From Acidobacteriaceae bacterium (lineage in GTDB: Bacteria > Acidobacteriota > Terriglobia > Terriglobales > Acidobacteriaceae): DNA of 64,000 bases. Below the pieces are notes generated by a model. The model was not told the DNA's origin, ran no database searches, and saw only the letters and a program-made list of their open reading frames with translations. Positions 43,627 through 43,740 of the stretch are shown here, in pieces. Location of the stretch: contig PKXQ01000118.1 of assembly GCA_003132405.1 (NCBI GenBank), positions 1-64,000 on the forward strand, in the 5' to 3' direction. Both the position numbers and the translations under genes were made by a program. Position 1 is the first letter of the stretch. Each line of letters begins with the position of its first letter.

Positions 43627-43740
43627 TGGTGCCGGGAGCGGGAATTGCACCCGCACGGGACGAATCCCAGCGGCTTCCTCACGGCTCTCAATGAGAGGCG
43701 TCAGGAAGGCCGCCGCGTCTGCTAGTTTCGCCATCCCGGC
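43627..43740 (-). tRNA. tRNA-Leu-like gene with anticodon arm replaced by a long hairpin (114 nt with CCA)
   Basis: GCCGGGA-T-GGCGAAACTAGCAGACGC-G-[44-nt hairpin]-T-GGGA-TTCG-TCCC-GT-GCGGG-TGCAATT-CCCGC-TCCCGGC-A-CCA. Acceptor, D, variable and T stems intact; no normal 7-nt anticodon loop. Confidence 0.8.

What the first reader, a model, noticed from the sequence alone, without database searches (positions are those of the whole stretch)
43627..43740. tRNA-Leu-like gene whose anticodon arm is a 44-nt hairpin
Seen directly: acceptor GCCGGGA/TCCCGGC, D-arm, variable stem GGGA/TCCC, T-stem GCGGG/CCCGC and encoded CCA are all intact. The region that should be a 17-nt anticodon arm is 44 nt: GCGG-C-CTTCCT-G-ACG-C-CTCTC-ATT-GAGAG-C-CGT-G-AGGAAG-CCGC, an almost continuous 18-bp stem with a 3-nt loop. 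Removing an intron-like insert to leave a 7-nt loop on the GCGGC/GCCGC stem does not give a Leu anticodon in any phase I tried. Established: bacterial LeuRS generally does not rely on the anticodon, so the RNA could in principle be leucylated without decoding. Inference: it may be a non-decoding tRNA mimic, decoy, guide, nuclease substrate or antitoxin RNA.
Basis: partly seen in the sequence, partly recalled or inferred. Interest (0 to 1): 0.92.

Follow-up and report, generated by a model that had tools for sequence, protein, structure and literature searches.

The report
Transposon-borne tRNA-Leu mimic, anticodon masked
A jumping gene in a soil acidobacterium carries an extra leucine-tRNA look-alike whose anticodon is locked inside a long hairpin; similar look-alikes travel in unrelated mobile insertions beside possible RNA-acting genes, so it is probably a non-decoding tRNA mimic with a job other than protein synthesis.

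Summary
The feature is real. It is a 114-nt tRNA-Leu-like gene on the MINUS strand (43740->43627) with an 18-bp, 44-nt hairpin as its anticodon arm. ARAGORN and Rfam's tRNA model do not call it.

(1) It lies inside a 3.9-kb IS1595-family transposon: 24-nt inverted repeats, 8-bp target duplication, transposase, an unnamed gene, a PIN gene and a DUF3825 gene. It starts 24 bp inside the right end.

(2) A congener has an 86%-identical copy in another IS1595-derived insertion, with empty sites in relatives. Its hairpin tip has a different sequence but still pairs. Similar genes occur in Zavarzinia, an Amylibacter MAG, a Phycisphaerales MAG and a prophage. In the first two, the RNA and a downstream gene (DUF3800; HEPN-like) form an insertion absent from relatives.

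(3) A Leu anticodon is still present (U-GAG-GA) but is base-paired to the insert.

The host keeps all five ordinary tRNA-Leu isoacceptors, so this is an extra gene. Best reading: a mobile, non-decoding tRNA-Leu mimic, perhaps the RNA partner or decoy of a co-mobilised protein (the partner step is inference). Main rivals: an intron-like insert removed by unknown splicing, as phage tRNA-Leu(UAA) genes suggest, or decay. Expression, charging and splicing are untested.

The parts
39868..39875 (.). left copy of 8-bp target-site duplication AAAAATAT (9-nt direct repeat TAAAAATAT from 39867)
   Evidence: TAAAAATAT at 39867 and 43790, just outside both TIRs
39878..39901 (+). left terminal inverted repeat GAATTAGGCACTTGACAAACCCAT (contains TTGACA)
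   Evidence: I1 (92% complementary to 43765-43788); identical 24 nt at the left end of the G029 element
39924..40910 (+). IS1595-family (ISXO2-like) transposase, 328 aa
   Evidence: Pfam PF12762 9.5e-31 and PF12760; NCBIfam NF033547 8.8e-52
41035..41826 (+). passenger gene X, 263 aa, no family found, abuts the PIN gene
41830..42315 (+). passenger PIN-domain protein, 161 aa (VapC-like, weak)
   Evidence: Pfam PF01850 1.6e-07; NCBIfam VapC 0.003, below cut-off
42483..43391 (-). passenger DUF3825 protein, 302 aa, first gene downstream of the tRNA-like gene on the same strand
   Evidence: Pfam PF12873 2e-44; AF2 model pLDDT 89.9 with no PDB match at E<=0.001
43409..43429 (-). terminator-like hairpin between the tRNA-like gene and DUF3825 (scores as such on both strands)
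43627..43740 (-). tRNA-Leu-like gene, 114 nt, A73 and encoded CCA
43670..43713 (-). 44-nt anticodon arm (18 bp, 3-nt loop)
   Evidence: re-paired tip in the G009 copy
43675..43708 (-). 34 nt in place of the 7-nt anticodon loop; its 5' strand CUUCCUGA pairs with UGAGGAA, burying the Leu anticodon GAG
   Evidence: sequence inspection
43765..43788 (-). right terminal inverted repeat, 24 bp upstream of the tRNA-like 5' end
43772..43777 (-). TTGACA hexamer within the right TIR, pointing into the tRNA-like gene; possible -35 box, poor -10 (GACGAT, 17-nt spacing)
   Evidence: sequence read; not reported by the promoter scan, so weak
43791..43798 (.). right copy of target-site duplication AAAAATAT

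Best explanation
It is a passenger RNA gene of an IS1595-family transposon: an extra tRNA-Leu derivative in which a hairpin has been inserted 5' of U33. The inserted strand pairs with the Leu anticodon (GAG), so the RNA keeps the parts that RNase P, CCA-adding or repair enzymes and LeuRS usually read, but cannot decode. Shown: the structure, the location between TIRs and target duplication, a second transposon-borne copy with a re-paired tip, similar RNAs in unrelated mobile insertions beside DUF3800 or HEPN-like genes, and the redundancy with five ordinary tRNA-Leu genes. Inferred: that it is transcribed and stays unspliced, and that it works as a tRNA mimic. The likeliest role is decoy, substrate or RNA antitoxin for the co-mobilised, presumably RNA-acting protein (DUF3825 or the PIN protein here), with a dedicated leucyl-RNA or LeuRS titrant next.
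For: Structure. TIRs, target duplication and transposase. Same TIR family elsewhere. Second copy; it lies in a ~0.5-kb insertion between thrC and thrB that congeners lack, with an IS1595 right TIR (alignment score 39, shuffled maximum 23). Its tip ACGUUCA-UUAGUC-UGGACGU replaces ACG-C-CUCUC-AUU-GAGAG-C-CGU and still pairs. Six-member alignment: arm helix 88% paired, 13 of 18 pairs changed on both sides; whole structure 93% paired against 42-48% when slid: (four of the six members were picked partly for folding, so read this with care). The NAG-GA of a Leu anticodon loop persists at the same place in 5 of 6. Mobile insertions with RNA plus a same-strand gene: Zavarzinia (DUF3800), Amylibacter MAG (HEPN-like). 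IS1595 transposase fragment and PIN gene beside the Phycisphaerales copy. Full Leu tRNA sets in this genome and Zavarzinia.
Against: No expression, aminoacylation or processing data. The partner link is weak: a close DUF3825 homologue (G018) and an IS1595 element with DUF3800 (G029) have no tRNA-like gene, the co-mobilised genes differ from case to case, and a terminator between RNA and gene is seen only in the window. The RNA is rare: 1 of 395 Alphaproteobacteria by pattern, 2 of 24 congeners. The G009 copy has ACA for CCA and two broken stem pairs, which suggests decay there. HEPN was assigned by eye (RNALSHG motif); Pfam found no family.
Confidence: 0.5

Rival explanations
1. Intron-like insert. 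The hairpin is cut out of the precursor and the halves are joined, giving an ordinary Leu(NAG) tRNA. Pairing of the insert with the anticodon resembles eukaryotic and archaeal pre-tRNAs.
For: The insert pairs with a preserved Leu anticodon. Four phage tRNA arrays (L233, L258, L393, L416) carry a tRNA-Leu with a 26-35-nt hairpin in the loop whose removal gives a perfect CUUAAAA Leu(UAA) loop; in the stretches held no other Leu(UAA) was called. Phage L173 and L276 also restore Leu loops.
Against: No bulge-helix-bulge motif; far too small for group I; bacteria have no known tRNA-splicing endonuclease (own knowledge). The host has all five Leu tRNAs. In the window the excised loop would have 8 nt or a C.A closing mismatch. 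The phage inserts sit at or near U34/A35, not at 32/33.
Confidence: 0.17
2. Captured tRNA-Leu pseudogene in decay: a transposon picked up a tRNA gene, a palindrome was inserted, and nothing selects for it.
For: Rare and patchy; A18 and G55 depart from the tRNA core; the G009 copy has lost CCA and two stem pairs.
Against: The tip was rewritten but still pairs in the two copies (each about 1% by shuffling); acceptor, D and T arms are intact in both at 86% identity; unrelated mobile insertions carry the same architecture.
Confidence: 0.2
3. Phage-type counter-defence tRNA: a tRNA-Leu whose anticodon loop was rebuilt so that anticodon nucleases cannot cut it, or that soaks them up.
For: PMC10264068 proposes that phage tRNAs escape VapC, PrrC and colicins through anticodon-loop changes; the element carries a PIN gene; one member is in a prophage (L176).
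Against: A tRNA that cannot decode cannot replace a cut one; the PIN protein's target is unknown.
Confidence: 0.1

Closest known systems
tRNA-Other of Bacillus cereus (pseudo-tRNA, PMC3399842)
   Same: tRNA-shaped RNA on a mobile island, not used in translation, with a non-decoding role
   Different: there the RNA flanks an island and is part of longer transcripts; here it is a Leu-type RNA with an extended anticodon hairpin inside a transposon
Allo-tRNAs of Acidobacteria, Proteobacteria and Clostridia (PMC7609411)
   Same: extra, structurally odd tRNAs in Acidobacteria and Proteobacteria
   Different: allo-tRNAs have 8/4 or 9/3 acceptor/T stems and a usable anticodon; this has 7/5 and no free anticodon
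IS1595-family transposons with passenger genes
   Same: transposase, TIRs, 8-bp target duplication, passenger genes
   Different: no tRNA-like passenger RNA found in the literature searched or in the other related IS1595 loci read
Type III toxin-antitoxin systems (ToxIN, PMC5086642)
   Same: RNA upstream of a co-oriented gene with a terminator between them (window only)
   Different: ToxI is an array of pseudoknot repeats; this is a single tRNA-like RNA and no toxin activity is known
Intron-bearing tRNAs (group I in bacterial tRNA-Leu(UAA); BHB introns in archaea)
   Same: insert in the anticodon loop, pairing with the anticodon
   Different: about 27 nt net, no group I core, no BHB, other position

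Membership tests
IS1595-family transposon (the carrier) | IS1595/ISXO2 DDE transposase with zinc ribbon | tested here: met
IS1595-family transposon (the carrier) | terminal inverted repeats bounding the element | tested here: met
   shared with G029 and G056 elements
IS1595-family transposon (the carrier) | 8-bp target-site duplication | tested here: met
   (AAAAATAT); G029 element CAAAATCT
Ordinary elongator tRNA-Leu | 7/5 acceptor/T stems, long variable arm, A73, CCA | tested here: met
Ordinary elongator tRNA-Leu | 17-nt anticodon arm with exposed Leu anticodon | tested here: not met
   anticodon GAG is paired within a 44-nt arm
Ordinary elongator tRNA-Leu | G18-T55 tertiary pair | tested here: not met
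   A18 and G55 in both copies; 73 of the ordinary Leu tRNAs parsed had G18G19 with T55, none had A18 with G55 (many could not be parsed)
Allo-tRNA | 8/4 or 9/3 acceptor branch | tested here: not met
   7/5
BHB-type tRNA intron | 3-nt bulge, 4-bp helix, 3-nt bulge at the exon-intron junctions | tested here: not met
   fold: one 1-nt bulge and 1x1 mismatches only
Group I intron | about 200+ nt catalytic core | tested here: not met
   insert is 34 nt in place of 7; no Rfam group I match in the window
Type III toxin-antitoxin | repeat/pseudoknot RNA antitoxin upstream of an endoribonuclease | tested here: not met
   single tRNA-like unit; nuclease activity of DUF3825 not testable, no PDB match
Charged non-decoding tRNA mimic | aminoacylated in vivo, absent from ribosomes | not testable with these tools
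   needs acid-urea northern and polysome profiles

The most novel reading that the evidence does not exclude
Small (20-35 nt), anticodon-pairing hairpin introns exist in bacterial and phage tRNA-Leu genes and are removed by an unrecognised protein splicing system, possibly encoded beside them (PIN, HEPN-like, DUF3825, DUF3800). The window gene would be a conditionally activated tRNA-Leu(GAG).
Probability: 0.12. Interest if true: 0.9.

Novelty: new variant of a known kind. Interest (0 to 1): 0.62.

Why it matters
tRNA-shaped RNAs with a masked anticodon, carried by transposons and other mobile insertions, would be a new type of passenger. The same architecture in Acidobacteria, Alphaproteobacteria, Planctomycetes and a prophage implies a selectable function. 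It offers a testable case of what a tRNA does when it cannot decode, or of splicing of tiny tRNA introns in bacteria. Standard tRNA callers miss the window copy, so the class is probably undercounted.

Tried and rejected
Disrupted host tRNA-Leu: rejected, all five isoacceptors are intact and the empty site of the G009 copy has no tRNA. Chance hairpin: rejected. Common cassette by protein homology: the X and PIN proteins of the window and of the Phycisphaerales locus do not align, so shared IS1595-X-PIN order is not shown to be shared descent of the cargo. IS1595 ends around Zavarzinia, Amylibacter, Phycisphaerales and prophage copies: none above shuffled controls, so those carriers are unidentified. 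Plasmid and phage nucleotide searches with L140 and L176: no match. Known defence families for the neighbours: none convincing. DUF3825 fold: no PDB match at E<=0.001; partial RelE-like hits with probability 0.5-0.7 are not significant. CM scan of 396 acidobacterial genomes found otherwise only ordinary tRNA-Leu among the matches listed, but only nine candidates per genome were scored.

Full report
Observation. The 114-nt gene runs on the minus strand from 43740 to 43627. ARAGORN and the Rfam tRNA model miss it. The insert alone is far more stable than shuffles. The core departs from a normal tRNA in A18 and G55.

Carrier. Inverted repeats at 39878-39901 and 43765-43788 (24 nt, 92% complementary) bracket an IS1595-family transposase, an unnamed protein, a PIN protein, a DUF3825 protein and the tRNA-like gene. 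AAAAATAT is repeated directly outside both ends, the 8-bp duplication expected of this family. A relative in the same family of bacteria (G029) has an element with an identical left repeat, an 8-bp duplication CAAAATCT and a DUF3800 passenger; another (G056) carries DUF433 and PIN_10 genes. Further related IS1595 loci carry no tRNA-like RNA. So the RNA is an occasional passenger, not a part of the transposition machinery.

Second copy. G009 (PLUW01000102.1, Acidobacteriaceae bog_443) has an 86%-identical copy. It lies in a ~0.5-kb insertion between threonine synthase and homoserine kinase genes. The insertion is missing from congeners, and one end is an IS1595 right repeat. The tip of the arm has a different sequence in the two copies and forms a hairpin in both. 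This pair was found by sequence similarity, not by folding, so it is the least biased evidence that the arm is maintained.

Relatives. A pattern scan for Leu-type tRNAs with an over-long middle gave four more long-hairpin members: Zavarzinia aquatilis, an Amylibacter MAG, a Phycisphaerales MAG and a prophage. Aligned with the window model the arm is 88% paired, with 13 of 18 pairs changed on both sides. These four were picked partly because they fold, so the figure is not an independent test. In five of six members the 3' strand contains NAG-GA, the remnant of a Leu anticodon loop, paired with an upstream complementary stretch of the insert. In Zavarzinia the RNA and a DUF3800 gene form a ~1.55-kb insertion absent from a relative. 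In the Amylibacter MAG the RNA and a 430-aa protein with an RNALSHG motif typical of HEPN domains (assigned by eye) form a ~2.0-kb insertion absent from relatives. In each of these, as in the window, the RNA lies near one end and points into the element towards a same-strand gene. In the Phycisphaerales MAG the RNA lies beside an IS1595 transposase fragment, an unnamed gene and a PIN gene, but these proteins do not align with those of the window.

Redundancy. The window's genome and Zavarzinia both have CAA, UAA, UAG, CAG and GAG tRNA-Leu genes. The long-armed gene is a sixth Leu-type gene and is not needed for decoding.

How it may work. LeuRS of bacteria reads the acceptor end, the core and the variable arm rather than the anticodon (own knowledge), so leucylation is possible while decoding is not. 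The arm would prevent ribosomal use. What it is for is inference. The mobile partners (PIN, HEPN-like, DUF3825, DUF3800) suggest RNA metabolism; a decoy or antitoxin is the simplest idea. Against a fixed pair, a close DUF3825 homologue and a DUF3800-bearing IS1595 element have no such RNA, and DUF3825 has no solved relative.

Rivals. Phage tRNA arrays contain tRNA-Leu(UAA) genes with 26-35-nt hairpins in the anticodon loop; excision would restore a perfect loop, and no other Leu(UAA) was called in the stretches held. This makes an intron-like process worth testing, although the site differs and no machinery is known. Neutral decay is possible, mostly because the gene is rare and the G009 copy has lost CCA.

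Literature. Reviews of non-canonical tRNAs describe allo-tRNAs with 8/4 and 9/3 stems (PMC7609411), not this arm. The nearest functional precedent is the B. cereus pseudo-tRNA (PMC3399842). Phage tRNAs as a shield against anticodon nucleases are proposed in PMC10264068. No paper found describes a tRNA-like passenger of an IS1595 element; subscription papers are not in the library.

Noticed in passing
L258, L393, L233, L416 (viral contigs): Phage tRNA arrays with tRNA-Leu(UAA) genes that carry a 26-35-nt hairpin in the anticodon loop, at or near U34/A35 where group I introns sit in bacterial tRNA-Leu(UAA); L258 and L393 share the insert sequence.
   Followed up: partly
L062, L095, L138, L157, L054 and many others (Pedobacter, Hymenobacter, Solitalea; also phage contigs L201, L205): Conserved tRNA-like RNA in Bacteroidota: acceptor UGUAGGG/CCCUACA, Leu-type D-arm, loop UUGUCUC, a ~40-nt structured variable arm and no CCA; ARAGORN mostly misses it.
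   Followed up: no
L180, L186, L193, L194, L230, L239, L269 and others (viral contigs): Phage group with acceptor AGUCAGG/CCUGACU, normal D and T arms and a hypervariable 48-77-nt middle without a clear anticodon stem.
   Followed up: no
L175, L196, L237, L245, L260 (viral contigs): Type II tRNA body with Leu-like D-arm, GUU (Asn) anticodon and G73.
   Followed up: no
L353:1583-3830 and L355:2134-4789: IS1595-family elements with the same TIRs as the window element, carrying DUF3800 and DUF433 plus PIN_10 passengers: this group of transposons moves toxin- or defence-like cargo.
   Followed up: partly
window 436-1295 (-): Cluster of four ordinary tRNA genes (Gly, Thr, Tyr, Thr).
   Followed up: no
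L021:10900-11100 (-): Short hydrophobic ORF (about 57 aa) between the tRNA-like gene and the right repeat in the G009 insertion.
   Followed up: no
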